A stretch of DNA of 44,564 nt from Syntrophomonadaceae bacterium. Lineage in GTDB: Bacteria; Bacillota; Syntrophomonadia; Syntrophomonadales; Syntrophomonadaceae. The translations under genes were made by a program, and so were the position numbers. Each line of letters starts with the position of its first letter. Within the stretch, counting starts at the first letter, position 1. Shown one piece after another: positions 3,586 to 39,986 of this stretch. A model generated the notes under the pieces. The model did not search any database. It saw nothing but the letters and a program-made list of their open reading frames with translations, and had not been told where the DNA came from. The stretch is from contig JAAYBS010000028.1 in NCBI GenBank assembly GCA_012718855.1, forward strand, positions 1-44,564, written 5' to 3'.

Positions 3586-4407
3586 ATGCAAGATTGGCAT
3601 TGGCAGCAAAAATGGGGGATATCGTACATCACTATTCCTGAATGGGCGGATATGGGGGCATTAGCGGCTTTTTCAGCCCGGTCGGGCGGTATTAGTTATA
3701 TGCCCTTTGATTCGCTGAATATGGGGCTTCATGTTGGCGATAACCCCCATCATGTAATTGAAAACCGAAAACGGTTTATGCTGGCAACAGGGGGGCAATT
3801 GGAACAGATGGTTTGTTGTCAGCAGGTTCATGGTGATAGAATCAAACTAATAAACCATAGCCATGCCGGACTTGGCGCAAAAGAAATGAAGACTGCAATA
3901 GGTGATTCGGATGCTATGATTACCAATGTTCCGGGAATATTTTTAACTACTTTTTATGCTGACTGTATTCCGGTATATTTCTTTGATCCGGTTAAGAGAG
4001 TTGTTGCTTTGGCTCACAGTGGCTGGAAGGGGACCATGCTGAGAATTGCTGAGAAAACTTTACAGAGTATGACTGAGGAGTATAAATGCAAGCCCAAAGA
4101 TATCCGCAGTTTTATTGGGCCTGGTATAGGAAGTTGTTGTTTTGCCATTGACGGTAGCTTAGCAGATAAAGCCATCCGGGAATTTGATTCTTTAAGTGAT
4201 ATAATCAGGTACAATAATGGTAAACAATATTGGGATTTACCGGCAACAATTTATCAGTGTCTGATTAAGGCGGGAATTGAGAATAACCATTTAAACATAT
4301 GCCCATTATGCACCTGTTGCAATGCAGATTATTTTTATTCATTTCGCCGGGATAAAGGGAATACAGGTCGCATGGGGGCAGTAATTACTTTATTGGAAAG
4401 GAATTAG
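3586..4407 (+). CDS. pgeF: PgeF/YfiH family (DUF152) purine nucleoside enzyme, YlmD
   Basis: A 273-residue protein of the multicopper-laccase-like DUF152 family. Family members act as purine nucleoside phosphorylase/adenosine deaminase in vitro and, in E. coli, as a peptidoglycan editing factor; older 'polyphenol oxidase' labels are doubtful. The metal and active-site motifs are intact: QQVHGD, ADCIPV, AHSGWKGT and GPGIGSCCF. A late CPLCTCC cluster near the C-terminus is also usual in this family. AGGAG sits about nine bases before the ATG. It is the counterpart of Bacillus ylmD, and the response regulator follows after three bases. Confidence 0.85.
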   Translation: MQDWHWQQKWGISYITIPEWADMGALAAFSARSGGISYMPFDSLNMGLHVGDNPHHVIENRKRFMLATGGQLEQMVCCQQVHGDRIKLINHSHAGLGAKEMKTAIGDSDAMITNVPGIFLTTFYADCIPVYFFDPVKRVVALAHSGWKGTMLRIAEKTLQSMTEEYKCKPKDIRSFIGPGIGSCCFAIDGSLADKAIREFDSLSDIIRYNNGKQYWDLPATIYQCLIKAGIENNHLNICPLCTCCNADYFYSFRRDKGNTGRMGAVITLLERN

Positions 4408-4410
4408 CAG

Positions 4411-5127
4411 ATGAAACCGTATAAAATTCTGGTTGTAGACGATGAAGACTATATTGTTGAACTGGTGAGATTTAATTTGGAAAAGGAAGGTTATCTGGTA
4501 GTTTCAGCCAGCAACGGAGAAGAAGCGCTTAATTCAGTAGCAAATGAAAAGCCTGATCTTATTCTACTGGATATAATGCTGCCTAATATTGACGGTCTGG
4601 AAGTATGTCGTACTTTAAAACAGAATCCGGAATTTAATACTATTCCTATTATTATGCTAACTGCCAAGGGCGATGAAATTGATACGGTGCTGGGTTTGGA
4701 AATGGGTGCCGATGACTATATTAAAAAACCATTTAGTCCTAGGGAAGTAATTGCTCGCGTAAAAGCAAGATTAAGGGCGTTGAAGGTTCTGGAAGCTGAA
4801 AAAGTTGTAGGAGAAAAGGCTTATGTTATTAAGGAACTTATTGTAGTGCCGGAAAAATATGAGGCTTTTATGGGTGAAACCAAATTGGAATTGACACCTA
4901 AAGAGTTTGAACTATTAAGTCTTATGGTAGCTAATCAGGGCAAGGTATTTACCAGAGAGGCTTTATTGGAAAAGGTTTGGGGATATGAATATTCAGGTGA
5001 TACTCGTACAGTAGACGTTCATATAAGACATTTACGTCAAAAATTAAACGATGATTCCAATTTCCCCGATTATATTGAAACCGTTCGGGGAGTAGGATAT
5101 AGATTTGTTGAAAGTCGTCTTAAATAG
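4411..5127 (+). CDS. OmpR/PhoB-family response regulator
   Basis: A 238-residue two-domain regulator. The receiver has the acidic pair D10-D11, phospho-acceptor D54 (LLDIMLP), T84 and K106 (KKP). The C-terminal winged helix starts near residue 140 (LTPKEFELL) and ends GVGYRF. It resembles PhoB/PhoP closely, but no phosphate genes are nearby, so the regulon is unknown. It lies three bases after pgeF and 14 bases before the kinase gene, so this two-component system sits inside the ylm cell-division cluster, between the counterparts of ylmD and ylmE. Confidence 0.93.
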   Translation: MKPYKILVVDDEDYIVELVRFNLEKEGYLVVSASNGEEALNSVANEKPDLILLDIMLPNIDGLEVCRTLKQNPEFNTIPIIMLTAKGDEIDTVLGLEMGADDYIKKPFSPREVIARVKARLRALKVLEAEKVVGEKAYVIKELIVVPEKYEAFMGETKLELTPKEFELLSLMVANQGKVFTREALLEKVWGYEYSGDTRTVDVHIRHLRQKLNDDSNFPDYIETVRGVGYRFVESRLK

Positions 5128-15505: not shown

Positions 15506-15771
15506 GATTCTTGATAAATCGTTTAATTACATAGTTTTATTACGATGAATGGAAGAGTAAGGAGAACTGCTTGACTGAAGAGAACCTGGGAGGGTGTGAA
15601 CCAGGTGCGGCAGACTTCTGAAAATCACCCAGGAGTATTTGAACCGACTGAAAAATAGGTTTAAACGTTACCCGCGTTAAGGGTTTAGAGTGGCATAGTA
15701 ATAAAATGCTATTAGGGTGGTACCGCGGAAGAATACCTTTCGTCCCTGGGGATGAGAGGTATTTTGTAATT
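15506..15771 (+). promoter_or_regulatory. T-box leader (isoleucine, ATC specifier) of ileS
   Basis: This fills the 389-base gap between nth and ileS. The T-box core AGGGTGGTACCGCGG is at 15714-15728, with TGGT (15718-15721) to pair with the uncharged tRNA acceptor end. A stem I region with GGGAGGGTG-like distal loops lies at about 15550-15660, and the specifier is read as ATC at 15624-15626 followed by A, matching tRNA-Ile. A terminator stem AATACCT/AGGTATT (15732-15763) ends in TTTTG. Uncharged tRNA-Ile would stabilise the antiterminator and allow ileS transcription. The T-box assignment is firm; the exact specifier is read by eye. Confidence 0.93.
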
Positions 15772-15804: not shown

Positions 15805-18597
15805 ATGGCAAAAAGTAAATATGACAGTACTTTAAATCTGCCCCGAACAGAATTTCCGATGCGTGCTAATCTTCCTACCAGGGAACCGGAAATCTTGTCT
15901 TTCTGGAAGCAGACAGATATGTATCATCAGGTTCAACAGAAGAATGCTGGAAAACCAAAGTTTATTCTTCATGATGGCCCTCCATATGCCAATGGAGATA
16001 TTCATCTGGGACATACACTGAATAAAGTATTAAAAGACATAATAGTTAAGTATAAGAGTATGAATGGATTTGACAGTCCTTATGTGCCGGGTTGGGATAC
16101 TCACGGTTTGCCTATTGAGCAGCAGGCTATTAAGAACATGGGAATTGATCGGCATCGTACTGATGTGGTTGAATTTCGCCGTCATTGCCGGGATTATGCT
16201 TTGAAATATGTAGATCTGCAGCGCGAGCAGTTTAAACGCTTAGGGGTAAGAGGGGATTGGGATAATCCTTATCTGACCTTAAAGCCGGAATTTGAGTCTA
16301 TTCAAATCAAAGTTTTCGGTGAAATGGCTAAACGGGATTATATTTATAAAGGATTAAAACCGGTTTACTGGTGCTCAGATTGTGAAACTGCATTGGCTGA
16401 AGCGGAAGTGGAATACAACGAAAAGTCATCTCCATCTATATATGTAGCCTTTCCAGTTATTGATGGCAAAGGAGTACTGCCGGAAGATTCATTTATCGTT
16501 ATCTGGACCACCACTCCATGGACTTTACCTGCTAATACTGGTATCTCAGTTCATCCTGAATTCGATTATGTAGTGGTTAAGGTAGCAAATCAGCTTTATA
16601 CAGTTGCCAAGGGATTATTACCTCAAGTAGCGGAAAATCTTGGCTGGGAAAAGGTTGAGATTATTAAGGAGTTCAAGGGGGCTGAAATTGAGCGTGCCCA
16701 ATGTAAACATCCCTTTTTTGAACGTAATTCATTAGTAGTATTAGGAGAACATGTTACTCTTGAGGCAGGGACTGGTTGTGTGCATACTGCTCCAGGTCAT
16801 GGTGAAGATGACTTTTATGTGGGTCGTGAATATGCCCTGGAAGTTCTGTCTCCAGTTGACGACAAAGGTAGATTTACTGATGAAGCCAAACAGTTCAAGG
16901 GTTTATATGTTCATGATGCCAACCAGGCCATAATACAGGAACTGGAGGCTAAGGGAAGGCTGCTTAAAGCTTCCAAACTGGAACATCAGTATCCATATTG
17001 CTGGCGTTGCAAACACCCGATTATTTATAGAGCAACTGAGCAATGGTTTGCTTCAATTGATGGTTTTAGAAATGAAACGCTCAAGGCTATTGATGAGGTC
17101 AAATGGATTCCTGCCTGGGGAAGGGACCGGATTTACAATATGGTTCGTGATCGCGGTGACTGGTGTATTTCCCGCCAGCGTACCTGGGGTGTTCCTATTC
17201 CAATCTTTTATTGTGACAGTTGCGGTGAAACCGTTATTAATGACGATACTATCAATCGAATCAGTTCGCTTTTTGCTGAACATGGTTCAGATATATGGTT
17301 TATGAAAACAGCTCAGGAATTGTTGCCACCGGGATACAAATGTGAGAAATGTGGCGGTGAAAGCTTTACTAAAGAAACTGATATCATGGATGTATGGTTT
17401 GATTCCGGATCCAGCCACATGGCAGTATTGGAGACTTATGAAGATCTAAGATGGCCGGCTGATATGTATCTGGAAGGCAGCGACCAGCATCGGGGATGGT
17501 TTAATTCATCGATTTCCACAGCAGTTGCGGTTAGAGGTACAGCCCCATATAAGCAAGTTCTAACTCATGGTTTCGTAGTAGATGAACAGGGACGCAAGAT
17601 GTCCAAGTCATTGGGAAATGTAGTTGATCCATTAAAATTAACTGAAGAATTGGGAGCGGATATATTAAGACTATGGGTTTCCTCAGCAGATTACCGTAAT
17701 GATGTTTCCGTATCAAATAACATCATTCGTCAAAGTGCCGAAGCTTATAGAAAGATTCGCAATACCTGCCGGTTTATCATAGGAAATCTGGCTGATTTTG
17801 ATCCTAATTCAGATAGGGTGAAATACGATGATCTGTCTGAGCTTGATAAATGGGCATTGTTGCGTTTGGAGAAATTAATTCGCCGTGTTACTAAAGCTTA
17901 TGATCAATATGAATTTCATGTGGTATTTCACTCCATGCATAATTTCTGTACGGTTGATATGAGCAATATTTATTTTGATGTTTTAAAGGATACGCTATAT
18001 TGTTCACCAGCAGGGGCCCAGGATCGCAGAGCCGCTCAAACCGTTCTTTATGAGATAATTAATGCTTTGGTAGTAATGTTGACGCCCATTCTGGCTTACA
18101 CCAGTGAAGAAATATGGCAATTTCTGCGTAAGCCCGAAGATCCGGTAAGTGTTCAACTATTGAATTGGCCTGAATTCAGGGATGAATACCTTAATGTTGA
18201 AATTGGCGGTCGTATGGATAAAATTTTACAGGTAAGAGAAGTAGTTACCAAAGCCCTGGAAGAGGCTCGGGCAGCTAAAACCATCGGTCATTCCCTGGCA
18301 GCGAGCGTAACTATTTATGCCAATGAAGAATGGCTGTCCATGTTAAACGCAACGACTAATCTGGAGAAAATATTTATAGTTTCCAAACTGGAATTGAGTT
18401 CAATAGAAAATAAACCTTCGCAATCGGTAAGTCTGGAGAATGTTGAAGGAATTTATGTGCAGGTTGGCCCGGCAGAAGGCGAAAAATGTGAACGCTGTTG
18501 GACCATCGACTTATCGGTGGGAACAGATAGTGATTATCCGGTATTATGTAACAGATGCAAGTCGGTCATAATGGAACAGGATAAACAGGAGGGATAA
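15805..18597 (+). CDS. ileS: Isoleucyl-tRNA synthetase
   Basis: A 930-residue class I synthetase charging tRNA-Ile. The HIGH motif is HLGH at residues 67-70, KMSKS is at about 598-602, and ETDIMDVWFDSGSS is intact. The editing domain lies in between, and the C-terminal zinc site uses C895, C898, C915 and C918. Full bacterial length. GAGGTG precedes the ATG by about nine bases. It is controlled by the T-box leader upstream and is followed after two bases by the ACT-domain gene. Confidence 0.97.
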   Translation: MAKSKYDSTLNLPRTEFPMRANLPTREPEILSFWKQTDMYHQVQQKNAGKPKFILHDGPPYANGDIHLGHTLNKVLKDIIVKYKSMNGFDSPYVPGWDTHGLPIEQQAIKNMGIDRHRTDVVEFRRHCRDYALKYVDLQREQFKRLGVRGDWDNPYLTLKPEFESIQIKVFGEMAKRDYIYKGLKPVYWCSDCETALAEAEVEYNEKSSPSIYVAFPVIDGKGVLPEDSFIVIWTTTPWTLPANTGISVHPEFDYVVVKVANQLYTVAKGLLPQVAENLGWEKVEIIKEFKGAEIERAQCKHPFFERNSLVVLGEHVTLEAGTGCVHTAPGHGEDDFYVGREYALEVLSPVDDKGRFTDEAKQFKGLYVHDANQAIIQELEAKGRLLKASKLEHQYPYCWRCKHPIIYRATEQWFASIDGFRNETLKAIDEVKWIPAWGRDRIYNMVRDRGDWCISRQRTWGVPIPIFYCDSCGETVINDDTINRISSLFAEHGSDIWFMKTAQELLPPGYKCEKCGGESFTKETDIMDVWFDSGSSHMAVLETYEDLRWPADMYLEGSDQHRGWFNSSISTAVAVRGTAPYKQVLTHGFVVDEQGRKMSKSLGNVVDPLKLTEELGADILRLWVSSADYRNDVSVSNNIIRQSAEAYRKIRNTCRFIIGNLADFDPNSDRVKYDDLSELDKWALLRLEKLIRRVTKAYDQYEFHVVFHSMHNFCTVDMSNIYFDVLKDTLYCSPAGAQDRRAAQTVLYEIINALVVMLTPILAYTSEEIWQFLRKPEDPVSVQLLNWPEFRDEYLNVEIGGRMDKILQVREVVTKALEEARAAKTIGHSLAASVTIYANEEWLSMLNATTNLEKIFIVSKLELSSIENKPSQSVSLENVEGIYVQVGPAEGEKCERCWTIDLSVGTDSDYPVLCNRCKSVIMEQDKQEG

Positions 18598-22121: not shown

Positions 22122-22198
22122 ACATACGGCTTTTATTTTTTCTTTCGCATGTGGTAAATTAACTGTGATTGGCAACAATTTTAAAAGGAGTCTGTGAA

Positions 22199-23605
22199 TT
22201 GAAAAAAATTGCTCTGATTATTGCTATTATGGCCGGGAAATTTGCTTCCTGTCTGAGCAGAATACTTGGTACCGGAGGTACATCCATACCTGGAAAAATA
22301 GCACTACGATTATATCCGCATATTCTTAGTGATCTGGCGGCCAATATTAGTGAAGAAATATTTATCGTTACCGGAACTAACGGTAAGACAACTACTACTA
22401 ACATGCTGGCGGAGATATTAAAGGAAAAAGGTTATAAGTTTGTGCATAATAGTGCCGGTGCTAATATGATAACCGGAATTACAACGGCTTTTATTAAAGA
22501 AACTGATTGGACGGGTAAACGCAAAATTGACTATGCTTTGCTGGAAACTGATGAGGCCAATGTTCCTTTGTTACTTCAACAGTTACATCCCCGTGTAGTA
22601 TTAATAACCAACTTTTTTAGCGACCAACTGGATCGGTATGGTGAATTGAATAATACCATTAATCTAATAAAAGATGCTGTACGCGATACGGATATAGAAT
22701 TAGTTCTAAATGCAGATGATCCGCTGGTAACCCATTTTAAAAATGAAACCGGGCTACATTGCTGGTATTACGGATTTGAGGCTACTAATTATGACAAATT
22801 ACAGGGTGAGGCGAGCCGAGAGGGGAGATACTGCGTGTTTTGTGGTCAGGAATTACTTTATCAAAGATTTCACTATGCGCAACTGGGGAAATTCTGCTGT
22901 TCGGAATGTGGCAACCAAAATCCCGAAAGCAACTTTACCGCTCATTCACTTATTCTGACTCCTAAAATTGAAATGAAGATTAATGATATTGAAATAAGAA
23001 GCCCCTATCAGGGTTTCTATAATGCTTATAATATACTGGCAGCAGTATCACTGGCCAAATTAGTGGGTATAGAAGATGAAATAATTCAAAAAGCTATTGC
23101 CAATTATGAACCCCGGGCAGGTCGTATGGAGCAATTTGAAATTGATAAACGTAAAGTAACTCTAATATTGGTTAAAAACCCTACCGGATTAAACCAGGCG
23201 CTGGCAACAATAAATACGGAACCTACCCCAAAGGCGATATTTTTTGCTTTAAATGATAATGTTGCCGATGGTCGTGATATTTCCTGGATATGGGATGCTG
23301 ATATTGAACAGATTACAGCTTTGGATTCAAATATAGAAGCTATAGTATGTTCGGGACTTAGAAGCGGGGATATAGCCTTACGCTTTAAATATGCTGATGC
23401 TCAGGTAGACCGTATATATATTGAGGATGAACTGCAATCGGGAATTAATAAAGCTTTATCGGTTGCAGCAGATGCAACTTATATCCTGTCAACTTATACA
23501 GCGTTATTCGTCTGTAGGGATATTTTACTAAAATTACAACAGGAAAGCATTACCTCTGCTGACCTGATTGATCAAAAACAAAAAAGCTCAGAAAGTCAGG
23601 GATAA
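22199..23605 (+). CDS. murT: Lipid II isoglutaminyl synthase, MurT subunit
   Basis: A 468-residue Mur-ligase-like protein that, with GatD, amidates the D-glutamate of lipid II to isoglutamine. The P-loop is GTNGKTTTTNML near residue 58. The central domain carries the MurT-specific zinc ribbon (CVFC, then CSEC) near residues 215-242. A DUF1727 domain follows. The N-terminus (GGTSIPGKIALRLYP) fits MurT. The start is the TTG at 22199, eight bases after AAAAGGAG; an in-frame TTG at 22169 lies before that site. gatD follows after three bases. Confidence 0.93.
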   Translation: MKKIALIIAIMAGKFASCLSRILGTGGTSIPGKIALRLYPHILSDLAANISEEIFIVTGTNGKTTTTNMLAEILKEKGYKFVHNSAGANMITGITTAFIKETDWTGKRKIDYALLETDEANVPLLLQQLHPRVVLITNFFSDQLDRYGELNNTINLIKDAVRDTDIELVLNADDPLVTHFKNETGLHCWYYGFEATNYDKLQGEASREGRYCVFCGQELLYQRFHYAQLGKFCCSECGNQNPESNFTAHSLILTPKIEMKINDIEIRSPYQGFYNAYNILAAVSLAKLVGIEDEIIQKAIANYEPRAGRMEQFEIDKRKVTLILVKNPTGLNQALATINTEPTPKAIFFALNDNVADGRDISWIWDADIEQITALDSNIEAIVCSGLRSGDIALRFKYADAQVDRIYIEDELQSGINKALSVAADATYILSTYTALFVCRDILLKLQQESITSADLIDQKQKSSESQG

Positions 23606-23608
23606 GTT

Positions 23609-24340
23609 ATGGCTGATTTTATCATTGCACATCTGTATCCGGAATTAATGAATCTTTATGGGGATCGGGGTAACATCATTTGTTTGCAAAAGAGATTGGA
23701 GTGGTACGGACATGATTGTTATATAGAAGCCATTCCTCGCGGTAGCAAGATACAATTTAATCAATATGACCTGATTTTCATGGGCGGGGGAGCCGATCGC
23801 GAACAAAAATTGGTTGTCAATGAATTAATTCATCAATCAAGTGAACTGAAACTGGAAATTGAACAGGGATTACCGGCCTTATTTATATGTGGTGCATATC
23901 AATTGCTGGGTAAATACTATGAATCTTCAGATGGGATGCAAATACCCGGATTAAATGTATTTGATTTTTATACCCGGAAAGAGAAAAATCGTCTGATTGG
24001 AAATATCGTTATCGCAGCATCTTTACGTGGGCAACCTTTTACAGTGGCAGGTTTTGAAAATCACTCCGGACGAACTTACTTTGAAAATGAAGAACTAAGA
24101 GCTCTGGGCAAAGTTATAAGTGGCTTCGGGAATAATGGTCAGGATGGACAGGAAGGTTTATGGTATAAAAATTTAATTGCTACTTATATGCACGGTCCTC
24201 TTTTGCCTAAAAATCCAATTCTGGCTGACTTTTTAATTGAAACCATGATGAACAGGAAGGGCCTTATATTTAAAGGCGGTTTGGATGATCACATTGAAAA
24301 TTACTCCCATGAACAAACCAAAAAGAGAATATTAGGCTGA
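23609..24340 (+). CDS. gatD: Lipid II isoglutaminyl synthase, GatD glutaminase subunit
   Basis: A 243-residue class I glutamine amidotransferase (CobB/CobQ-like) that feeds ammonia to MurT. Catalytic Cys94 (FICGAYQLLG) and His195 (YMHGPLLPKNP) are intact, and GFENHSGRTY is characteristic. It is a useful contrast: this glutaminase keeps its nucleophile, unlike CarA in the same window. It starts three bases after murT; the two subunits form one complex in the cytoplasm. Confidence 0.94.
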   Translation: MADFIIAHLYPELMNLYGDRGNIICLQKRLEWYGHDCYIEAIPRGSKIQFNQYDLIFMGGGADREQKLVVNELIHQSSELKLEIEQGLPALFICGAYQLLGKYYESSDGMQIPGLNVFDFYTRKEKNRLIGNIVIAASLRGQPFTVAGFENHSGRTYFENEELRALGKVISGFGNNGQDGQEGLWYKNLIATYMHGPLLPKNPILADFLIETMMNRKGLIFKGGLDDHIENYSHEQTKKRILG

Positions 24341-29499: not shown

Positions 29500-30153
<654 letters not shown>

Positions 30154-30170
30154 AAAGCACCCTTTAATCT

Positions 30171-30246
30171 GGTCCGGAGAGGCTGGCAAGGGAAAGGATT
30201 TCAAAGAGGTTAGACCTTCCTTGCCGGTTAGGCAGGAAGGTTTTTT
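30171..30246 (+). promoter_or_regulatory. PyrR attenuator between pyrR and pyrB
   Basis: A near-consensus PyrR loop GGTCCGGAGAGGCTGGCAAGG is split here as GTCCGGAGAGGCT (30172-30184) and GGCAAGG (30185-30191). The terminator pairs ACCTTCCTTGCC (30214-30225) with GGCAGGAAGGT (30231-30241), one bulged T, followed by six T. The alternative antiterminator pairs GGCAAGG plus AAGG (30185-30197) with CCTTCCTTGCC (30215-30225). High UMP with PyrR favours termination before pyrB. Confidence 0.92.
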
Positions 30247-30268
30247 GTATATAAGAGGAGGCAGTTGG

Positions 30269-31201
30269 ATGAATCAGAAAGATCTATTAGGACTTAAAGA
30301 ACTTAGGCGGGAGGATATTGAAACCATACTGGATACGGCTGTTCCCATGAAGGACATTATTAAACGGGATATTAAGAAAGTACCTACCTTAAGAGGTAAA
30401 GCTATGGTTACGGTATTTTATGAAAACAGCACCCGTACCCGAACCTCCTTTGAAATTGCCGGGAAATACCTTAGTGCTGATACAGTGAATCTGGCAGTGT
30501 CTACCAGCAGCGTACAAAAAGGTGAGAGTCTGAAAGATACCATAAAAACTATTGAAGTTATGGGTTTTGACCTTATGGTTATCCGGCATTCCATGAGCGG
30601 TACGCCCCATTATGTTTCGCGTAATACCAATATGAGCGTTATTAATGCCGGGGATGGTACTAATGAACATCCTACCCAGGCTTTACTGGACTTATATAGC
30701 ATAAGGGAAAAGAAAGGTACCCTGGAAGGCTTAAAGGTGGCAATTGTGGGTGACATTTTACACAGTCGGGTAGCCAGATCCAACATATACGGTTTAAGCA
30801 AGTTCGGTTGTGAAGTACGGGTAGTTGGTCCGGCAACCCTTATGCCGCCGGGTTTGGAAAAAATGAATGTAAAAAGTTATCATAGTTTGGATGCTGCTTT
30901 AAAAGGTGTGGATGTAATAAATATTTTGCGTATTCAGAAGGAAAGACAGCAAACCGGATTATTCCCCTCACTGGATGAATATGCAAACCTATATATGCTA
31001 AGACCCGAACACTTGCAAGCCGCCAAGGAAGATGTGCTGGTTTTGCATCCGGGACCAATGAATCGTGGGATTGAAATATCCAGCCAGATAGCCGATGGAC
31101 TTAATTCAGTTATTAATGAACAGGTGACTAATGGTGTTGCAGTAAGAATGGCTTTATTATTCCTGATGATGGGAGGTTCAAAAAATGAAGTTGCTAATTA
31201 A
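30269..31201 (+). CDS. pyrB: Aspartate carbamoyltransferase catalytic subunit
   Basis: A 310-residue enzyme that joins carbamoyl phosphate and aspartate. The carbamoyl-phosphate loop is STRTRTSFE (near residue 53). VQKGES (active Lys), HPTQALLD and HPGPMNRG are intact. No pyrI regulatory subunit gene is present, as in Bacillus. The ATG at 30269 lies seven bases after AGAGGAGG. It overlaps pyrC by 17 bases. Confidence 0.97.
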   Translation: MNQKDLLGLKELRREDIETILDTAVPMKDIIKRDIKKVPTLRGKAMVTVFYENSTRTRTSFEIAGKYLSADTVNLAVSTSSVQKGESLKDTIKTIEVMGFDLMVIRHSMSGTPHYVSRNTNMSVINAGDGTNEHPTQALLDLYSIREKKGTLEGLKVAIVGDILHSRVARSNIYGLSKFGCEVRVVGPATLMPPGLEKMNVKSYHSLDAALKGVDVINILRIQKERQQTGLFPSLDEYANLYMLRPEHLQAAKEDVLVLHPGPMNRGIEISSQIADGLNSVINEQVTNGVAVRMALLFLMMGGSKNEVAN

Positions 31202-32471
31202 GGGAGGAAGAGTAATTAATCCCTCCTCCGGACTGGATGAAGTAATTGATATTTTGGTTGAGGATGGAATAATCAAGGCAATTTCCAAAGATATTCAAGT
31301 AGATAAAAATGTTAATATTGTACATGCTGACAATAAAATAGTATGTCCCGGGTTTATAGATTTACATGTACATCTTAGAGAACCTGGGTTTGAATATAAA
31401 GAGGACATAGCTTCAGGAACCAGAGCTGCTGCTGCAGGAGGATTTACCAGTATCTGTTGTATGCCCAATACTAATCCGGTAATTGATAACGCTGCAGTTG
31501 CCAGTTTTGTGAAAGAAAGAGCCGCCAAGTCGGGTGTAGTAAATGTATATCCTATTGGAGCAGTGACCAAGCAACAGGCCGGAAAAGAACTGGCTGAAAT
31601 AGCTGATCTGGTAACTGCCGGTTGCGTAGGTTTATCGGATGATGGCAAACCGGTATTGGGGTCAGATATTATGAGACATGCCATGGATTATGCCAATATG
31701 TTTAATCTGCCCATTTTATCTCATTGTGAAGATACTGGACTAAGCTCCGGAGGGCAAATGAACGAAGGTTATTTTTCTACCATATTTGGATTACAGGGCA
31801 TCCCGGATGAAGCTGAAGAAGTAATGGTAGCCAGAGATATCATGTTGACCGGCTTAACTGGGGCCAGGCTTCATTTGTGTCATTTATCTACGGCTGGCTC
31901 GATTAATTTGGTAAGACTGGCTAAAAAGAAGGGTTTGAACGTTACCTGCGAAGTTACACCTCATCATTTAACCTTAACTGATGAAGTTATAGAGGGCTAT
32001 GATACGGATGCCAAAGTTAATCCACCGCTCAGAACACCTGAAGATATTGAAGCCCTAATTGTGGGTATTAATGATGGGACTGTAGATTGTATTGCTACCG
32101 ACCATGCTCCACACCATCTTGAAAGCAAAGATTGTGAGTTTAATCTGGCTGCATTTGGTATTTCCGGTTTGGAAACAGCTATACCGGTGGTTATGAGTCT
32201 GGTTAATAGTGGCAAGATTGACTTAATGCGTATGGTGGAATTATTTACGGTCGGGCCGGCCGATATTATTAATCTTGACCGGGGTACTATTGAAGTTGGA
32301 GCCATAGCTGATATAACCATTATTGATCCTGATAAAATTCAGATGGTAAACCCCCAGAATTTCTATTCCAAAGGGAAGAATACACCATATAAAAATAGGG
32401 AATTTCGAGGTTGGCCTTATGCAACCATAGTAAAGGGTGAATTGGTAGCCAGTGAAGGAATTGTCAGATAA
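31185..32471 (+). CDS. pyrC: Dihydroorotase (type I)
   Basis: A 428-residue zinc amidohydrolase cyclising carbamoyl aspartate. Metal ligands appear in DLHVHLREPG (near residue 60), SHCED, HLCHLST and DHAPHH. The type I length and the DDGKPV motif fit Gram-positive PyrC. GGGAGG seven bases before the ATG lies within the end of pyrB. carA follows after 16 bases. Confidence 0.96.
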   Translation: MKLLIKGGRVINPSSGLDEVIDILVEDGIIKAISKDIQVDKNVNIVHADNKIVCPGFIDLHVHLREPGFEYKEDIASGTRAAAAGGFTSICCMPNTNPVIDNAAVASFVKERAAKSGVVNVYPIGAVTKQQAGKELAEIADLVTAGCVGLSDDGKPVLGSDIMRHAMDYANMFNLPILSHCEDTGLSSGGQMNEGYFSTIFGLQGIPDEAEEVMVARDIMLTGLTGARLHLCHLSTAGSINLVRLAKKKGLNVTCEVTPHHLTLTDEVIEGYDTDAKVNPPLRTPEDIEALIVGINDGTVDCIATDHAPHHLESKDCEFNLAAFGISGLETAIPVVMSLVNSGKIDLMRMVELFTVGPADIINLDRGTIEVGAIADITIIDPDKIQMVNPQNFYSKGKNTPYKNREFRGWPYATIVKGELVASEGIVR

Positions 32472-32487
32472 GGAGAGATTAAGCACG

Positions 32488-33555
32488 ATGAAAGGTTACT
32501 TAGTGTTGGAAAATGGCCGCATATTCGAAGGGAAATTGCTTAATGATTGTCTGCGGGCTGAGGGTGAGGTTGTATTTACGACTGCCATGATTAGCTACCA
32601 GGATATTATTACTGACCCCTCCTACTATGGGCAAATTGTGGTTATGACTTATCCTCTGGTAGGAAATGTAGGATTTAATGAGAAAAGTTTTGCTTCCCGG
32701 GGAGCTATGATTAGGGGATTAATTATGCGTGAAGCCACTGATTTCCCCAGTCATTATGAAATGGAAATTGATTTGATCAGTTTCCTCAATAAAAGTGAAA
32801 TAGCAGTATTAACTGAGATTGATACCCGTGCGTTAACCAGACAAATTAGAACCAGTGGTGTAATGGGGGGAATAATAACTGACCAGATTGATGACCTGGA
32901 AATGTTGATTGACAAGGCTAAACAGGCCGCCCGGGATTTACAGGGGGATATGGTCAGGTATGTTACGCGTCGAAATATAATGAAGTTTGGCAACGGTAAT
33001 AAACGGGTAGTCCTGCTGGATTTGGGTACGAAAAAAGGAGCCATAAGCTCATTGACCAGGCGTGGATGTGAAGTAATAGCTGTTCCGGCAACAACTGATA
33101 TTACTGAAATTATGAAACTGAATCCTTCAGGAGTAATTATATCTGATGGTCCGGGTGACCCTGAGGCTATTCCTTATGTTATGAAAACCTGTCGCCAAAT
33201 GGTGGGACAAAAACCTATGTTGGGTATAGGTCTGGGACATCAGGTGCTGGCATTATCCATGGGAGCAACGACCAACCGTTTAACTTTTGGTCACCGCGGG
33301 ACTAATCATCCGGTCAGAAACCTGGAAGATAATCGAATTTACATTACTACTCAAAATCATGGCTTTGTTATAAACGAGGACTCATTAAAACCAACTGATA
33401 TGGTAGTTACTATGCGTAGCCTTAATGATAATACCGTGGAAGGAATCAAACATAAAAAACTACCGGTATTTTCTTTACAATTTGATCCTGAAGGCTATCC
33501 CGGATACAGTGAAACCGGGTTTTTCTATGACCAGTTTTTAAATGAACTCCGCTAA
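32488..33555 (+). CDS. carA: Carbamoyl-phosphate synthase small subunit lacking glutaminase catalytic residues
   Basis: A 355-residue CarA of normal length and fold: N-terminal domain (about 1-150), then a class I amidotransferase domain. The nucleophile motif should read GICLGHQ; here it is GIGLGHQ, with Gly248 (codon GGT, 33229-33231). The catalytic His should be in HPEA; here it is DPEG, with Asp333 (codon GAT, 33484-33486), while Glu335 is kept. The usual SNGPGDP reads SDGPGDP (Asp220). LGHQ, QNHGF and [10 protein letters not shown] remain. In E. coli CarA, loss of the Cys abolishes glutamine use while ammonia-dependent synthesis persists, and vertebrate CPS I also lacks this Cys. So this subunit is predicted to be glutaminase-dead. 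The ATG at 32488 follows AAGGAGAG; an in-frame ATG at 32452 lies within pyrC. No frameshift is seen, so it is not a pseudogene by that test. Confidence 0.93.
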
Positions 33556-33584: not shown

Positions 33585-36500
33585 ATGCCCCTTAAACAAG
33601 GTTTAAAAAAAGTACTGGTTATTGGTTCCGGTCCCATTATTATCGGGCAGGCAGCAGAATTTGATTATGCTGGTACCCAGGCATGTCGAACCTTAAAGGA
33701 AGAAGGTTTGGAAGTTGTATTGTTGAACAGTAATCCGGCTACTATAATGACTGATACCAATATAGCTGACCGGGTTTATATGGAACCAATTACAGTAGGT
33801 ACTGTAACCAAAATATTAAAACGGGAAAAGCCGGATGGTATAATTGCTAATTTGGGTGGTCAGGTTGGTTTAAATATGGCATTGGCGCTTGATACGGCAG
33901 GAATATTGGAAAAGACTGGTGTGCCGCTGCTGGGAATGCCCCTGGATGCAATTAAGCGAGCAGAGGATAGAGAATTATTCAAACAGACCATGCAGGATAT
34001 CGGTGAACCAATTCCGGAAAGTGCTATTGTTCATTCTACCGAGGAGGCAGTTGTTTTTGCCGAAACTATTGGATATCCGGTGATTGTTAGACCGGCCTAT
34101 ACACTGGGTGGTACTGGCGGTGGAAATGCCGGCAATCGGGATGAACTGCAGGTGATTGTTGAAAAGGGGCTAAAGAACAGTCCCATAAAACAAGTACTGA
34201 TAGAACGCAGTGTAGCAGGATATAAGGAAATTGAATTTGAGGTAATGCGTGACGACAATGATAACTGCATAACTATTTGCAGTATGGAAAATATCGATCC
34301 CGTTGGAATTCATACTGGTGACAGCATCGTAGTAGCTCCGGCACAAACTTTGACTGATGAAGAATATCAGATGCTAAGGTATTCGGCACTGAAAATTATC
34401 CGCTCTTTAAAAATAGCCGGGGGATGCAATGTTCAGTATGCATTGGACCCTTTCAGCAAAAAGTATTATGTCATTGAGGTGAATCCACGCGTAAGCCGTT
34501 CCAGTGCTCTGGCATCCAAAGCTACTGGTTACCCGATTGCCAAAGTTACTACTAAAATTGCGATTGGGTACTCCCTGGATGAGATACCCAATACTGTAAC
34601 CGGAGTGACCACGGCTTGTTTTGAACCGGCCATAGATTATGTAGTTTTAAAGGTACCTCGCTGGCCATTTGATAAATTTGTTTTTGGTGATCGACGTCTG
34701 GGTACGCAGATGAAAGCTACCGGAGAAGTTATGGCCATAGACAGAAGTTTTGAGGCAGCATTTTTAAAATCAATTCGTTCTCTGGAAATTGGCATAACTG
34801 GTTTGCGTTTAGCTGAGCTCAAAAATATCAGTGACCAAAATCTGCGTGAACGATTGAAGATTGCAGATGATGAACGCATGTTCATATTAGCTGAAGCGTT
34901 TAGTAGGGGAAGCTCCATTGATGATGTATGGGAAACGACCAGAATTGATAAATATTTTCTTAAGAAAATGAAAAATATTATTGATTTTGCCCAGCATATT
35001 AAATCTAATGAACTGGATAAAGAGATTTTACAGGAAGCTAAGAAGATGGGCTTTTCTGATGTTGAGATTGCCGAAATCAAAGGTATTACAGAAAACGCTG
35101 TTCGCCAATTAAGAAAAGAACATAACATATTACCTACTTACAAACTGGTTGATACCTGTGCTGCCGAATTTGATGCAGTTTCACCTTATTTCTATTCCTG
35201 TTATGAACTTGAAAATGAAGCCCTGCATGACACTCAGGTGCGCAAAGTGCTGGTAGTTGGATCCGGTCCAATTCGAATAGGACAGGGGGTTGAATTTGAC
35301 TATTGTTCGGTGCATTGCGTCTGGGCGTTAAGGGATGCGGGCATCAAAGCCATTATTGTAAATAATAATCCGGAAACAGTAAGCACGGACTTTGATATTT
35401 CTGATCGGCTTTATTTTGAACCGCTGATATTTGAAGATGTGATGAACATTATCGAAGAAGAACAACCGGAAGGGGTAGTAGTACAATTTGGCGGGCAGAC
35501 AGCTATAAATCTGGCTAATCCGCTAACCCGGGAAAATATTAAGTTATTAGGAACAACAAATGATAGCATTGACCGGGCCGAAGACCGTAACCGGTTTGAT
35601 ATGATGGTTGAAAAGTTGGGAATTCCGCGCCCACCGGGAATCAGTGTTTATACAGTTGAAGATGCTATCCTGGCTGCACAGAAAATTGGTTTTCCGGTAT
35701 TGGTAAGACCATCTTATGTGTTAGGCGGTCGGGCGATGGAAATAGTTTATAACAATGAAGAGCTTGAGCAGTATATGCAAACCGCTGCAAAAATAAACCG
35801 GGAGCACCCGGTATTGGTTGATAAATACCTGCTGGGTAAAGAAATTGAAGTTGATGCAGTTTGTGACGGCAAATCAGTACTTATCCCCGGAATTATGCAA
35901 CATATTGAGCGAGCGGGGGTTCATTCCGGTGACAGCATGGCAGTATTTCCAGCCTATAGTCTGAGCTCTGAAATAACTGACAAAGTAATTGATTATACAC
36001 GCAAATTGGCTTTGGAGCTTCCGGTAATTGGTTTAATCAACATTCAGTTTGTTGAATATGAGAATGAATTATATGTCCTGGAGGTTAATCCCCGTTCCAG
36101 CAGAACCATTCCCTTTATCAGTAAAGTAACTGGAATACCTATGGTTAAGCTGGCAGTTGAAATCATGCTGGGTAAAAGTCTGGCGGATATGGGATACAAA
36201 GATGGTCTTCAATCCCCACCTGAATTTTTTGCGGTAAAAGTACCGGTATTTTCTTTCAATAAATTGGAGCAGGTAGATATTACATTGGGACCGGAAATGA
36301 AATCAACCGGTGAAGTAATGGGAATAGACAGGTCATTAAAAATGGCTATTTATAAAGGATTAATAGCCGCCGGTCTAGAAATACCCAAGAAAGGAACTAT
36401 TGTAGCCACGATTGCAGACAAAGATAAAGAAGAAGCTCTTCCCTTGTTGCAAAAGTTTGCCCAAAACGGCTTTAAACTCGTCAGTACTCATGGTACTGCC

Positions 36501-36797
36501 AAAGCTTTGCAACAAATAGGAGTAGAGGCCGAGATAGTTAAAAAGATCAGTGAAGGCTCGCCAAATATTGTTGATTTAATTCGGGAAGGTAAAGTTGATT
36601 TTTGTGTTAATACCTTAAATCATGGTCGCCGGCCATTTTCAGACGGATTTCAAATACGCCGGGCGGCAGTAGAGCTTAATGTGCCCTGTCTAACTTCATT
36701 GGATACTTTGAAAGTAATCCAGGAAGTAATCCGGGAAGTTGATAATATGCAGGATTTGGAGATTTATTCACTGCAGGAGTATATAGCTCAGCAATAA
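33585..36797 (+). CDS. carB: Carbamoyl-phosphate synthase large subunit
   Basis: A 1070-residue synthetase with two ATP-grasp halves: one at about 1-400 ([47 protein letters not shown]), the other at about 553-935 ([39 protein letters not shown]). An oligomerisation region lies between them, and a C-terminal MGS-like allosteric domain carries [12 protein letters not shown] and [18 protein letters not shown]. All ATP-grasp landmarks look intact, so the synthetase can work if ammonia reaches it; the partner CarA appears unable to supply it from glutamine. AAGGAGAG precedes the ATG. Confidence 0.97.
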
Positions 36798-36811: not shown

Positions 36812-37600
36812 ATGCCAGGGATGCAGCAAGGATTGGTAATCAGTCATAATCAAGTTAATCGAGATATGTTTGAGTTGGAGTTTATTGCACCTGAAATAGC
36901 AGAAGAATGTCAGCCAGGTCAGTTTATACACATAAAACCGGGACTGCGGGATCAACCCTTATTAAGAAGACCGCTAAGTATCTATGATGTTGATAAGCGT
37001 TTAGGCAGTGTAACTCTCTTGTATAAAGTAGTAGGAACAGGAACCAGATTGCTTACTTCAGTTCGTACCAAAGAATATGTTGATGTTATGGGTCCTCTGG
37101 GACGGGGATTTAAATTACCTGACCAACCGGAAAGAATCTTGCTGGTTGGCGGAGGTGTTGGTATTGCACCGCTGGTATATTTGGCCAGAGTTTTGGAAGA
37201 ACAGGGATGCGACATTACTGTATTACATGGAACGGAAAGCCGTCGGCAACTGGTTGCTTTTGAAAAATTACGTCAGATCGGTACAGATTTCTTCCCTGCC
37301 ACCATGGATGGTACAGCCGGATATAAAGGACTGGTAACAGAATTATTATTAAAAAAAATTGAACCAAAAAAGCTGGACAGAATATATACCTGTGGCCCCG
37401 AACCTATGATGGCGGTAGTAGCAGAATTTGCTGCCAATCATAATATCGAAGCTGAAGTATCATTGGAAGAATACATGGCTTGTGGAGTTGGAGCCTGTCT
37501 GGGATGTGCCCGTAAACTTAAAACCAATGACACCCAATATGTTAAAGTGTGCAAAGATGGACCGGTATTTAATATCAAAGAGGTCGAATTATATAAATAA
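36812..37600 (+). CDS. pyrK: Dihydroorotate dehydrogenase electron-transfer subunit
   Basis: A 262-residue FAD and [2Fe-2S] protein that passes electrons from PyrD to NAD+. The FAD-binding RRPLSIYDVD, the nucleotide-binding LLVGGGVGIAPLV and the cluster cysteines (YMACGVGACLGCARKL and a later VCKDGP) are present. It starts 14 bases after carB behind AAGGAGGG. Together with pyrD it defines a class 1B, NAD-linked enzyme, suited to an anaerobe. Confidence 0.95.
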   Translation: MPGMQQGLVISHNQVNRDMFELEFIAPEIAEECQPGQFIHIKPGLRDQPLLRRPLSIYDVDKRLGSVTLLYKVVGTGTRLLTSVRTKEYVDVMGPLGRGFKLPDQPERILLVGGGVGIAPLVYLARVLEEQGCDITVLHGTESRRQLVAFEKLRQIGTDFFPATMDGTAGYKGLVTELLLKKIEPKKLDRIYTCGPEPMMAVVAEFAANHNIEAEVSLEEYMACGVGACLGCARKLKTNDTQYVKVCKDGPVFNIKEVELYK

Positions 37601-37647
37601 GCATGAAATAAATACTGCAGGATGGCAAGAAAAAGGGGAGTATTAGT

Positions 37648-38589
37648 TTGAAAAAAGAAATGGAAATTTCACGGGAAATTGATATTTCCACAGATCTGGG
37701 AGGAATAAAACTTAATAACCCGGTTTGCGCAGCCTCGGGTACATTTGGTTATGGACGTGAGTATGAACCTTATGTAGATATATCTAAAATTGGGGCAGTA
37801 ATCGTAAAGGGGACCACTTTAGAGCCTAGAGCAGGTAATCCTCCACCCAGAATAATTGAAACTGCTTCGGGAATGTTAAATGCCATTGGTCTTGAAAATC
37901 CGGGAATTAATGAGTTTCTCAACACTCATCTGCCATATCTGAGAGAAAATAATGTTACGGTTATCGCTAATATTGCAGGAAATACGATTGAAGAATATGC
38001 AGCCATAGCAGAGATGATTGAAGGTAATCCCGGAGTAGCTGGAATTGAATTAAATATTTCCTGCCCTAATGTCAAACAGGGGGGTCTGCAATTTGGTACT
38101 GATCCGCAAATGGTTTACGAAGTAGTTAAAGCTGTAAAGGAAAAAACCACACTTCCGGTTATGCCGAAACTAAGTCCCAATGTAACCGATATAGTAGAAA
38201 TTGCCCGCGCTAGTGAAGCCGGAGGAGCAGATGCCTTATCAATGATTAATACTCTGATGGGAATGGCGGTTGATATTAATACCCGCAAGCCATTTCTGGC
38301 CAATATCTTTGGCGGATTATCCGGACCGGCTATTAAACCGGTAGCTTTACGCATGATTTATCAAGTTTACCGGGAAGTAAAACTGCCCATTCTCGGTGGC
38401 GGAGGAATAGTTAATTATCGTGATGCTTTGGAATTCTTGATGGTGGGTGCTACCGCTATCTCAGTTGGAACTGGAATATTTATTAATCCACAATTAACAG
38501 AAGAGATTGTCAGTAATCTGCTGCATTATATGCAGGAGAATAATGTTGCTTCATTAAGCGAGCTGGTTGGAGCAGCTCACCAGGCATAA
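37648..38589 (+). CDS. pyrD: Dihydroorotate dehydrogenase catalytic subunit (class 1B)
   Basis: A 313-residue FMN enzyme oxidising dihydroorotate to orotate. Catalytic Cys139 lies in [24 protein letters not shown], the FMN site [14 protein letters not shown] and AISVGTGIF are intact. It starts with TTG, seven bases after GGGGAG. The PyrK partner is directly upstream. Confidence 0.95.
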
Positions 38590-38620
38590 ACACTCAAATA
38601 TATTAAACCAATAACTATAG

Positions 38621-38651
38621 TTGACTCAAAGCGGCTAATAACGAATACTAT
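38621..38651 (+). promoter_or_regulatory. Possible internal promoter before pyrF
   Basis: In the 92-base gap between pyrD and pyrF, TTGACT (38621-38626) and TACTAT (38646-38651) are 19 bases apart. The spacing is long and the -10 weak. No terminator is seen in the gap, so read-through from pyrD is likely in any case. Confidence 0.25.
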
Positions 38652-38681
38652 AGATAGTTTGGCAATAAGGGGGAAAATGCA

Positions 38682-39401
38682 TTGCAGGCAAAAGACCGAA
38701 TAATTCTGGCACTGGATGTAGATACCGAAAAGCAGGCATTATCACTGGTGGAACAATTAAGCCCAACCATAGGTGTATTTAAGGTGGGCATGCAACTGTA
38801 TAACAGTTGCGGACCACAAATTGTTGAAAAGATTAACCAGACCGGAGGAAAGGTATTTGTAGATCTTAAATTTCATGATATACCTAATACGGTCGCAGCA
38901 GCAGGCAAGGTATTAACCCGTTTGGGTTGTTACATGTTTAATATTCATGCTGCCGGGGGCCGGGAGATGATGAACCAGCTGGTAAAAGGAGTTTATGAGG
39001 AAGCGAAACTGAATAATATCTCCCCACCATTAACCCTGGCAGTAACAGTGCTAACCAGCATATCCCAGAGTCAACTGGAAAATGATATGTTTATTAAGGA
39101 TAAATCAGTTGAGGAAACCGTAGTTGAATGGGCAAGAATGGCACAGGAATGTGGTATTAATGGTGTAGTATGCTCACCGCAGGAAATCACCGCTATCAGA
39201 AATGCCTGTGGCAGAGATTTTAAAATAGTAACCCCGGGAATAAGACCTTCCTGGTCAGCTGCCAACGACCAGAAGCGAATTACGACTCCTAAAGAAGCAG
39301 TAACGATGGGAGCAGATTACATGGTAATTGGTCGGCCAATTACTGTTGCTGATAATCCCCAAGCTGCTGCGTTAAGAATTATTGAAGAGTTGGAGGGATA
39401 A
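38682..39401 (+). CDS. pyrF: Orotidine 5'-phosphate decarboxylase
   Basis: A 239-residue TIM-barrel enzyme making UMP from OMP. The catalytic D-x-K-x-x-D array is in FVDLKFHDIPNT. LALDVDTEKQAL opens the protein and TPGIRP and VIGRPIT close the phosphate site. The start is TTG with AAGGGGG about eight bases before it; an ATG six bases upstream is in another frame. pyrE follows after three bases. Confidence 0.95.
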   Translation: MQAKDRIILALDVDTEKQALSLVEQLSPTIGVFKVGMQLYNSCGPQIVEKINQTGGKVFVDLKFHDIPNTVAAAGKVLTRLGCYMFNIHAAGGREMMNQLVKGVYEEAKLNNISPPLTLAVTVLTSISQSQLENDMFIKDKSVEETVVEWARMAQECGINGVVCSPQEITAIRNACGRDFKIVTPGIRPSWSAANDQKRITTPKEAVTMGADYMVIGRPITVADNPQAAALRIIEELEG

Positions 39402-39404
39402 ATA

Positions 39405-39986
39405 GTGTTAAACCAGGATGAAGCACGCCAGATATTTATTGATGCCCAGGCATTATTAAATGGACACTTTAAACTAACTTCCGGTCGGCATAGCAATCAA
39501 TATATGCAATGTGCTCAGGTTTTAAAATATCCGCATTATACCGAGAAATTAGCCCGACATTTGGCTGATGGTTTTCTTGACGATGGAGTTGAACTGGTAG
39601 TTGGACCTGCCATGGGAGGTATTATTGTAGCCTATGAAGTTGGTCGCCAATTAGGAGTTCCGGCAATTTTTACAGAACGTCAGGATGGTGAAATGGTTAT
39701 TCGCCGTGGTTTTAATATTGAACCGGGACAAAAAGTCCTGGTAGTCGAGGATGTAGTAACTACTGGCGGATCAGTTAAAGAGGTAATTGAACAGGTGAAA
39801 TCTGCCGGTGGTGAAGTTATTGGTGTAGGTGTTTTAGTTGACCGCAGCGCTGGTAAAGTTGACTTTGGAGTTAAGACAGTAGCGACGTTGACCATGGATA
39901 TTGAATCCTGGGAACCGGATAACTGCCCTTTGTGTCAGGAAGGAAAGATTGAGGTTATTAAACCAGGCAGTCGTACGGTTAAATAA
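39405..39986 (+). CDS. pyrE: Orotate phosphoribosyltransferase
   Basis: A 193-residue PRTase making OMP from orotate and PRPP. The PRPP motif is VLVVEDVVTTGGS, and FTERQDGEMVIRRGF the flexible loop region. A CPLC pair near the C-terminus is seen in some relatives of this longer type. GTG start seven bases after GGAGGG. Confidence 0.95.
   Translation: MLNQDEARQIFIDAQALLNGHFKLTSGRHSNQYMQCAQVLKYPHYTEKLARHLADGFLDDGVELVVGPAMGGIIVAYEVGRQLGVPAIFTERQDGEMVIRRGFNIEPGQKVLVVEDVVTTGGSVKEVIEQVKSAGGEVIGVGVLVDRSAGKVDFGVKTVATLTMDIESWEPDNCPLCQEGKIEVIKPGSRTVK

What the first reader, a model, noticed from the sequence alone, without database searches (positions are those of the whole stretch)
32488..33555. CarA with both glutaminase catalytic residues replaced (Cys to Gly, His to Asp)
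Seen directly: the nucleophile motif reads GIGLGHQ (Gly248, codon GGT) and the His motif reads DPEG (Asp333, codon GAT). Each is one base away from the canonical codon, yet the frame, length, ribosome site and operon place are normal and carB is intact. SNGPGDP is also changed to SDGPGDP. Established: Cys and His are required for glutamine hydrolysis by CarA; ammonia-dependent synthesis survives without them, and vertebrate CPS I lost the Cys. Inference: this pyrimidine operon encodes an ammonia-driven bacterial carbamoyl-phosphate synthetase, fitting an ammonia-rich anaerobic life, or an unidentified amidotransferase supplies ammonia. A structural or allosteric role would explain why the subunit is kept.
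Basis: partly seen in the sequence, partly recalled or inferred. Interest (0 to 1): 0.88.

Follow-up and report, generated by a model that had tools for sequence, protein, structure and literature searches.

The report
Glutaminase-dead CarA conserved in Syntrophomonadaceae
A whole family of anaerobic bacteria keeps a carbamoyl-phosphate synthetase small subunit whose glutamine-splitting residues are gone, so the enzyme that starts pyrimidine (and probably arginine) synthesis should run on free ammonia, while some relatives carry a second, working subunit inside nitrogen-assimilation operons.

Summary
The window's CarA (32488-33555) has Gly248 for the Cys nucleophile and Asp333 for the catalytic His. 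All 28 closest homologues (26 genomes of the same family plus two named Syntrophomonadaceae records) have Gly248 and Asp220 (SDGPG); 27 have Asp333. They form one fully supported clade under purifying selection. CarB looks intact, as do the other amidotransferases that could be read. The subunit almost certainly cannot hydrolyse glutamine, so CarAB should use free ammonia.

Fifteen genomes, including the window's and two single-contig ones, have only this CarA; none has an ammonium transporter and 14 lack glutamate synthase. Eleven others also carry a canonical CarA, ten of them as an orphan without its own carB. Live carA lies mostly in operons with PII and Amt or with GOGAT. In two further genomes the dead carA is deleted or absent and the live one remains. 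All 13 live-CarA genomes have Amt.

I infer an ammonia-only CPS by default, with an optional glutaminase subunit tied to nitrogen scavenging that borrows the same CarB. The chemistry resembles vertebrate CPS I; I found no report of it in bacteria. Nothing biochemical was tested.

The parts
32488..33555 (+). carA, glutaminase-dead small subunit of carbamoyl-phosphate synthetase
33145..33147 (+). Asp220 codon GAT (E. coli N240; SDGPGDP)
33229..33231 (+). Gly248 codon GGT in place of the Cys nucleophile (E. coli C269)
33484..33486 (+). Asp333 codon GAT in place of the catalytic His (E. coli H353)
33505..33507 (+). Tyr340 codon TAC, clade-specific change of the otherwise invariant Pro (E. coli P360)
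33585..36797 (+). carB, large synthetase subunit with the tested catalytic, tunnel and UMP-site residues intact
29509..30153 (+). pyrR, regulator
30157..30248 (+). PyrR-binding leader RNA (51.3 bits, just under the Rfam cut-off of 54)
30221..31201 (+). pyrB, aspartate carbamoyltransferase
31185..32471 (+). pyrC, dihydroorotase
36812..39986 (+). pyrK, pyrD, pyrF, pyrE (36812-37600, 37648-38589, 38682-39401, 39405-39986)

Best explanation
This carA encodes a pseudo-glutaminase subunit. It keeps the CarA fold and its place next to CarB but cannot split glutamine, so CarAB in this organism makes carbamoyl phosphate for pyrimidines, and very probably arginine, from free ammonia, bicarbonate and 2 ATP. 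Shown by sequence: loss of Cys and His, fixation in the family, purifying selection, intact CarB, other amidotransferases intact where read, and absence of Amt and mostly of GOGAT in genomes that have only this CarA. Inferred: ammonia dependence; a remodelled pocket and pocket exit (N240D, P360Y, A356G, G38S in E. coli numbers) that admits or holds ammonia or ammonium; and, in relatives with both subunits, exchange of the dead CarA for a nitrogen-regulated live CarA on the same CarB.
For: (1) C269G, H353D, N240D, P360Y and G38S are fixed or nearly fixed in the clade against near-invariance in 98 canonical CarA; Cys-269 and His-353 are essential for glutamine hydrolysis in E. coli (PMC6245113). 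(2) One clade, SH-aLRT 100, inside live CarA of the same order. (3) dN/dS 0.045-0.09. (4) CarB keeps the sampled catalytic, tunnel and UMP-site residues. (5) GuaA, PyrG and TrpG/PabA of G000, G021 and G004, where read, keep their Cys, and HPE where seen: the loss is specific to CarA. (6) G021 and G004, single contigs 98-99% complete, have one CPSase_sm_chain domain only, the dead one, one CarB and an ornithine carbamoyltransferase. (7) 0 of 15 dead-only genomes have Amt, 13 of 13 live-CarA genomes with this CarB do (Fisher p 2.7e-8; six independent contrasts all concordant, sign test p 0.031); 14 of 15 dead-only genomes have no real GOGAT hit although all have glutamine synthetase. (8) Live orphan carA is followed by PII, then Amt where the contig continues (nine genomes), or preceded by GOGAT genes (G031, G032).
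Against: No biochemistry. E. coli CPS uses ammonia only at very high, probably unphysiological concentrations (PMC6245113), so a changed ammonia affinity or high internal ammonium has to be assumed. The window's own genome is 82.7% complete and could hide a second carA, although no Amt was found in it either. Residues that contact glutamine in E. coli (S47, Q273, N311) and the triad Glu (E355) are retained, which a purely structural role would not need. Amt and live carA are usually in one operon, so their co-loss can be a single event. That two CarA types share one CarB is inferred from gene counts and from G006 and G030.
Confidence: 0.82

Rival explanations
1. The dead CarA still binds glutamine without splitting it and acts as a sensor: glutamine (or another ligand) in the retained pocket tunes the ammonia-dependent CarB. 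This is compatible with ammonia use and adds a regulatory role.
For: S45, G221, G223, Q252, N290, H291 and E335 (E. coli S47, G241, G243, Q273, N311, H312, E355) are invariant in the clade although hydrolysis is gone; the GAT domain is under purifying selection.
Against: The same residues may be kept for folding or for the contact with CarB; a large part of CarA is conserved in both groups. N240D puts a charge next to the pocket.
Confidence: 0.25
2. The pocket uses another chemistry: Asp220, Asp333 and Glu335 activate water or bind a metal, so glutamine is still hydrolysed without Cys.
For: Two carboxylates are fixed around the old active site together with Glu335.
Against: No class I amidotransferase is known to me to work without the Cys; G026 has Ala at 333 with the rest conserved; relatives that have Amt and usually GOGAT keep or regain a Cys-type CarA, which would be pointless.
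Confidence: 0.04
3. A separate amidotransferase or glutaminase, not CarA, feeds ammonia to CarB in trans.
For: Other amidotransferases are present and intact.
Against: No candidate in the operon; those read are assigned to GuaA, PyrG and TrpG/PabA; with CarA still docked there is no known entry for a foreign subunit.
Confidence: 0.04
4. The dead CarA is only a structural leftover on the way out, with no adaptive meaning; CarB works equally well alone or with any CarA.
For: It is deleted in G006 and absent in G030, and orphan CarB without any CarA exists in the order.
Against: Low dN/dS and retention in 26 genomes of the family; clade-specific fixed changes; the two losses found are both in genomes that have a live CarA.
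Confidence: 0.12
5. Sequencing or assembly error, or a decaying pseudogene, in one draft genome.
For: Draft genome of 231 contigs.
Against: Same residues in 28 sequences from independent assemblies, all four Gly codons, two single-contig genomes, dN/dS 0.045.
Confidence: 0.005

Closest known systems
Vertebrate CPS I (ammonia-dependent, mitochondrial; human CPS1, PDB 5dot/5dou)
   Same: Glutaminase-like domain retained but without the catalytic Cys; ammonia as sole nitrogen source (PMC4655335). The AlphaFold model of the window's CarA matches it at TM-score 0.90.
   Different: CPS1 has Ser for Cys, is one fused chain, needs N-acetylglutamate and serves urea synthesis. Here Gly replaces Cys, Asp replaces His, the subunits are separate and the gene lies in a pyrimidine operon. 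The loss is independent: the clade lies inside bacterial CarA.
Bacterial CPS II, E. coli CarAB
   Same: Same subunits, fold (TM-score 0.94), operon partner and CarB chemistry; laboratory C269 and H353 mutants of E. coli CarA are the nearest equivalent.
   Different: E. coli CarA hydrolyses glutamine; Cys and His are present, and P360, N240 and G38 are unchanged.
Bullfrog CPS I and Alcolapia fish CPS III
   Same: Separate shifts of a CPS from glutamine towards ammonia (PMC7657897).
   Different: Both keep the catalytic triad and lose glutamine-binding residues; here two triad residues are lost and most pocket residues are kept.
Other Cys-less CarA of Bacillota found here (G040, G051 x2, G057, G079, G084, G202 x2, G283)
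   Same: CarA with GxGxGHQ-like or GISLGAQ motifs.
   Different: Scattered, mostly on separate branches of the best tree, often divergent, without the fixed D220/D333/Y340 set.

Membership tests
CarA, glutamine-hydrolysing CPS small subunit (TIGR01368; PF00988 + PF00117) | Full-length profile match above the curated cut-off | tested here: met
   402.9 bits against 307.35; both Pfam domains
CarA, glutamine-hydrolysing CPS small subunit (TIGR01368; PF00988 + PF00117) | Nucleophile Cys in GxCxGHQ | tested here: not met
   Gly in 28 of 28 of the clade
CarA, glutamine-hydrolysing CPS small subunit (TIGR01368; PF00988 + PF00117) | Catalytic His in HPE | tested here: not met
   Asp in 27, Ala in 1 of 28
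CarA, glutamine-hydrolysing CPS small subunit (TIGR01368; PF00988 + PF00117) | Third triad residue Glu and glutamine-contacting residues | tested here: met
   E355, Q273, N311 and S47 equivalents kept
CarA, glutamine-hydrolysing CPS small subunit (TIGR01368; PF00988 + PF00117) | Genetic partnership with CarB | tested here: met
   Directly before carB in the window and in the relatives mapped
CarA, glutamine-hydrolysing CPS small subunit (TIGR01368; PF00988 + PF00117) | Glutaminase activity | not testable with these tools
   Needs the purified complex
CPS I (ammonia-dependent, vertebrate) | Loss of the glutaminase Cys | tested here: met
CPS I (ammonia-dependent, vertebrate) | Ammonia-only activity | not testable with these tools
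   Inferred from residues and gene content
CPS I (ammonia-dependent, vertebrate) | Single fused chain | tested here: not met
   Separate carA and carB frames
CPS I (ammonia-dependent, vertebrate) | N-acetylglutamate as obligatory activator | not testable with these tools
   Needs kinetics; UMP-site residues of bacterial CarB are kept

The most novel reading that the evidence does not exclude
A subunit-exchange switch: Syntrophomonadaceae with both genes make one CarB that pairs with a pyrimidine-regulated, ammonia-only CarA when ammonium is plentiful and with a nitrogen-regulated, glutamine-splitting CarA (encoded with PII, Amt, GS or GOGAT) when it is scarce; lineages that lost high-affinity nitrogen assimilation, like the window's, have become obligate ammonia users.
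Probability: 0.55. Interest if true: 0.85.

Novelty: new variant of a known kind. Interest (0 to 1): 0.74.

Why it matters
Bacterial CPS is described as glutamine-dependent (CPS II), and the ammonia-only form with a dead glutaminase domain is credited to vertebrates (reviewed in PMC6022934). Here the same kind of loss is fixed across a bacterial family, occurs in scattered other Bacillota, and goes with absence of ammonium transport and mostly of GOGAT. It offers a natural, testable case of when an ammonia-channelling enzyme drops its glutaminase, and possibly of a swap of small subunits on one synthetase. It also shows that the name 'glutamine-hydrolyzing' given by TIGR01368 would be wrong for these proteins, which affects nitrogen budgets in models of syntrophic digester bacteria.

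Tried and rejected
Sequencing error or local mutation: rejected by 28 homologues with all four Gly codons. Pseudogene: rejected by dN/dS and intact frames. General loss of amidotransferases: rejected, the GuaA, PyrG and TrpG/PabA that could be read are intact; some further amidotransferase hits did not match my motif pattern and were not examined. Hidden second CarA in close complete relatives: none in G021 or G004. RNA element in front of live-carA operons: Rfam at gathering score found none in the seven loci searched. Motif census over 399 Bacillota genomes: of the 30 matches read, 4 were CarA, the rest Obg GTPases or unrelated frames; 73 matches were listed and not all were read, so the frequency outside the family is not estimated. 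I wanted a printed alignment of L243 with human CPS1 (remembered motif GISTGNL), but only E. coli chains were printed, so that comparison rests on memory. The E. coli ammonia-tunnel paper PMC2748306 is not held; that P360, A356 and G38 lie at the pocket exit rests on memory. Ten paper searches gave no report of a Cys-less bacterial CarA, but most subscription journals are not in that library.

Full report
Observation. The window's frame 32488-33555 is CarA of 355 residues between pyrC and carB. The nucleophile motif reads GIGLGHQ (Gly248, GGT at 33229), the His motif DPEG (Asp333, GAT at 33484) and the neighbouring pocket motif SDGPGDP (Asp220, GAT at 33145). Alignment with E. coli puts these on C269, H353 and N240.

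Operon. The surrounding genes are lspA, rluD-like, pyrR, pyrB, pyrC, carA, carB, pyrK, pyrD, pyrF, pyrE, with a PyrR-binding leader at 30157-30248 slightly below the Rfam cut-off and the same element above the cut-off in relative G021. By these signs the subunit is under pyrimidine control.

A family trait. A search of 60 relatives and a scan of named genomes found the same CarA in 26 genomes of the same family. The contigs of L072, L074 and L075 have the lengths of contigs of G025, G016 and G024 and carry the names Syntrophomonas or Syntrophomonadaceae, so I take the family to be Syntrophomonadaceae. G021 (one contig of 2,936,195 bases) has the size I remember for S. wolfei; that identification is from memory. 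All 28 sequences of the clade have Gly248, with all four Gly codons; 27 have Asp333 (L007 has Ala); 28 have Asp220. The other CarA of the named-genome scan keep Cys and His. In a tree of 82 CarA the dead sequences are one clade with SH-aLRT 100, next to live CarA of the same order: one loss, followed by long retention. dN/dS is 0.045 between this genome and its sister (GAT domain 0.053) and 0.05-0.09 in two other pairs.

What changed and what did not. Against 98 canonical CarA the clade has fixed or nearly fixed C269G, H353D, N240D, P360Y, G38S, E41D and A356G (E. coli numbers), while S47, G241, G243, Q273, Q310, N311, H312, E355 and G359 stay. Those 98 exclude the Cys-less CarAs described below. 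AlphaFold2 predicts the normal fold (pLDDT 90.6; TM-score 0.94 to E. coli CarA, 0.90 to human CPS1). CarB of the same operons keeps the positions tested, among them R129, R169, E215, Q285, E299, N301, R715, E761, E841, N843, the carbamate-tunnel glutamates, C232, S307, A309, A311 and the UMP-site residues K954, T974, T977, K993 and N1015 (the assignment of these residues to roles is from memory). In G000, G021 and G004 the GuaA, PyrG and TrpG/PabA that could be read keep their Cys, and HPE where seen. So the loss is confined to CarA and the synthetase looks active.

Gene content. Fifteen genomes have only the dead CarA (G000, G001, G004, G005, G007, G013, G014, G019, G021, G023, G024, G026, G027, G028, G034), nine of them at least 96% complete, two in one contig. 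All but G001 and G026 have a found ornithine carbamoyltransferase, so carbamoyl phosphate is needed for citrulline too; the window's genome has it. None of the fifteen has an Amt transporter. Only G026 has a real glutamate-synthase hit; the others show only weak matches, the best with E 5e-7. All have glutamine synthetase. Eleven genomes with the dead CarA also have a canonical CarA (ten as an orphan, G010 as part of a second carAB). Two more (G006, G030) have a canonical CarA and the dead one is gone: G006 shows a remnant in which about the first 30 codons, interrupted by a stop, run straight into the last codons; in G030 pyrC is followed directly by carB. All thirteen have Amt. Fisher p is 2.7e-8; taking relatedness into account on a CarB tree, six independent contrasts all go the same way, p 0.031. 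Because live carA and amt are usually neighbours, part of this is linkage; in G006 and G032 they are on different contigs.

Where the live CarA sits. Among twelve orphan live carA of the family, nine are followed by a PII gene and then, where the contig continues, by amt (G002, G003, G009 with contig end after PII, G012, G016, G022, G025, G030, G035); G012 and G030 continue with an ANTAR regulator and glutamine synthetase. In G031 carA ends an array ANTAR - glnA - asparagine synthase - PII - amt - split GOGAT - carA, all on one strand, and in G032 it follows gltB and a gltD-like gene. G006 has no such neighbour. G010 and G011, and by position G029, carry instead a complete carAB of another lineage followed by PII and amt. 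In the sister family, G038 has its only CarA at the end of an ANTAR - glnA - GOGAT array, and G040 has a pyrimidine operon with no carA.

Mechanism. Shown: a pocket without nucleophile and base, an intact CarB, and coupling of the live alternative to nitrogen-scavenging genes. Established: Cys-269 and His-353 are essential for glutamine hydrolysis (PMC6245113); CPS variants with a blocked or perforated tunnel still use external ammonia, which probably enters by another path (PMC4655335). Inferred: this complex uses free ammonia. Genomes with two CarA but only one CarB (G002, G003, G009, G012, G016, G025, G031) imply that the two subunits share it, and G006 and G030 suggest that the live CarA can serve this CarB. 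I therefore propose a default ammonia-only enzyme with an optional glutaminase subunit made together with the nitrogen-assimilation genes. Regulation by nitrogen is inferred from neighbourhood only. A caution: the E. coli enzyme uses ammonia only at very high concentrations (PMC6245113), so the affinity must have changed or internal ammonium must be high.

Recurrence. Cys-less CarA also occurs in G040, G051 (both copies), G057, G079, G084 (its only CarA), G202 (both copies) and G283. The best tree needs eight separate changes for this group, but well-supported branches force only two, and several are long branches. The trend is wider than this family; its frequency was not measured.

Novelty. 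The inferred chemistry is that of CPS I, known from vertebrates. The fixation in a bacterial family, the C269G/H353D/N240D/P360Y set and the two-CarA arrangement were not found in ten searches of open-access papers. I call it a new variant of a known kind.

Noticed in passing
L181-L185, L188, L190-L192, L194, L200 (e.g. G037:C54:21017-24223): A second CarB type (about 46% identical to the window's, tested catalytic residues kept) stands without a neighbouring carA; G037, G039 and G017 (98-100% complete) have only this CarB, no CPSase_sm_chain domain and no Amt, so it may be a CarA-free ammonia CPS.
   Followed up: partly
L278 (G010:C50), L279 (G011:C120), L063 (G029:C15): A complete carAB of another lineage followed by PII and amt; in G010 and G011 the carB reading frame is long (about 1358 codons against the usual 1070).
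   Followed up: partly
L069 (G006:C22) about 4400-4600: Remnant of the dead carA with a large internal deletion and a stop, between pyrC and carB, in a genome that has a live orphan carA.
   Followed up: yes
L238, L244 (G202) and L051, L060 (G051): Two other Bacillota genomes (96-99% complete) in which both CarA copies lack the catalytic Cys.
   Followed up: partly
L236 (G084:C16:36867-37937): The only CarA found in this 96% complete genome reads GIGIGHQ and HPQ: another probable ammonia-only CPS.
   Followed up: partly
L061/L243 (G057:C96): CarA motif GIGTGNL resembles the GISTGNL that I remember for human CPS1; not verified here.
   Followed up: no
window 15536-15750: T-box leader (116.5 bits) in front of the 930-residue ORF 15805-18597, probably an aminoacyl-tRNA synthetase.
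   Followed up: no
window 22169-24340: MurT-GatD-like pair (Mur ligase with CobB/CobQ-like amidotransferase); the amidotransferase has FICGAYQ, so a Cys is present there, another control for the CarA loss.
   Followed up: partly
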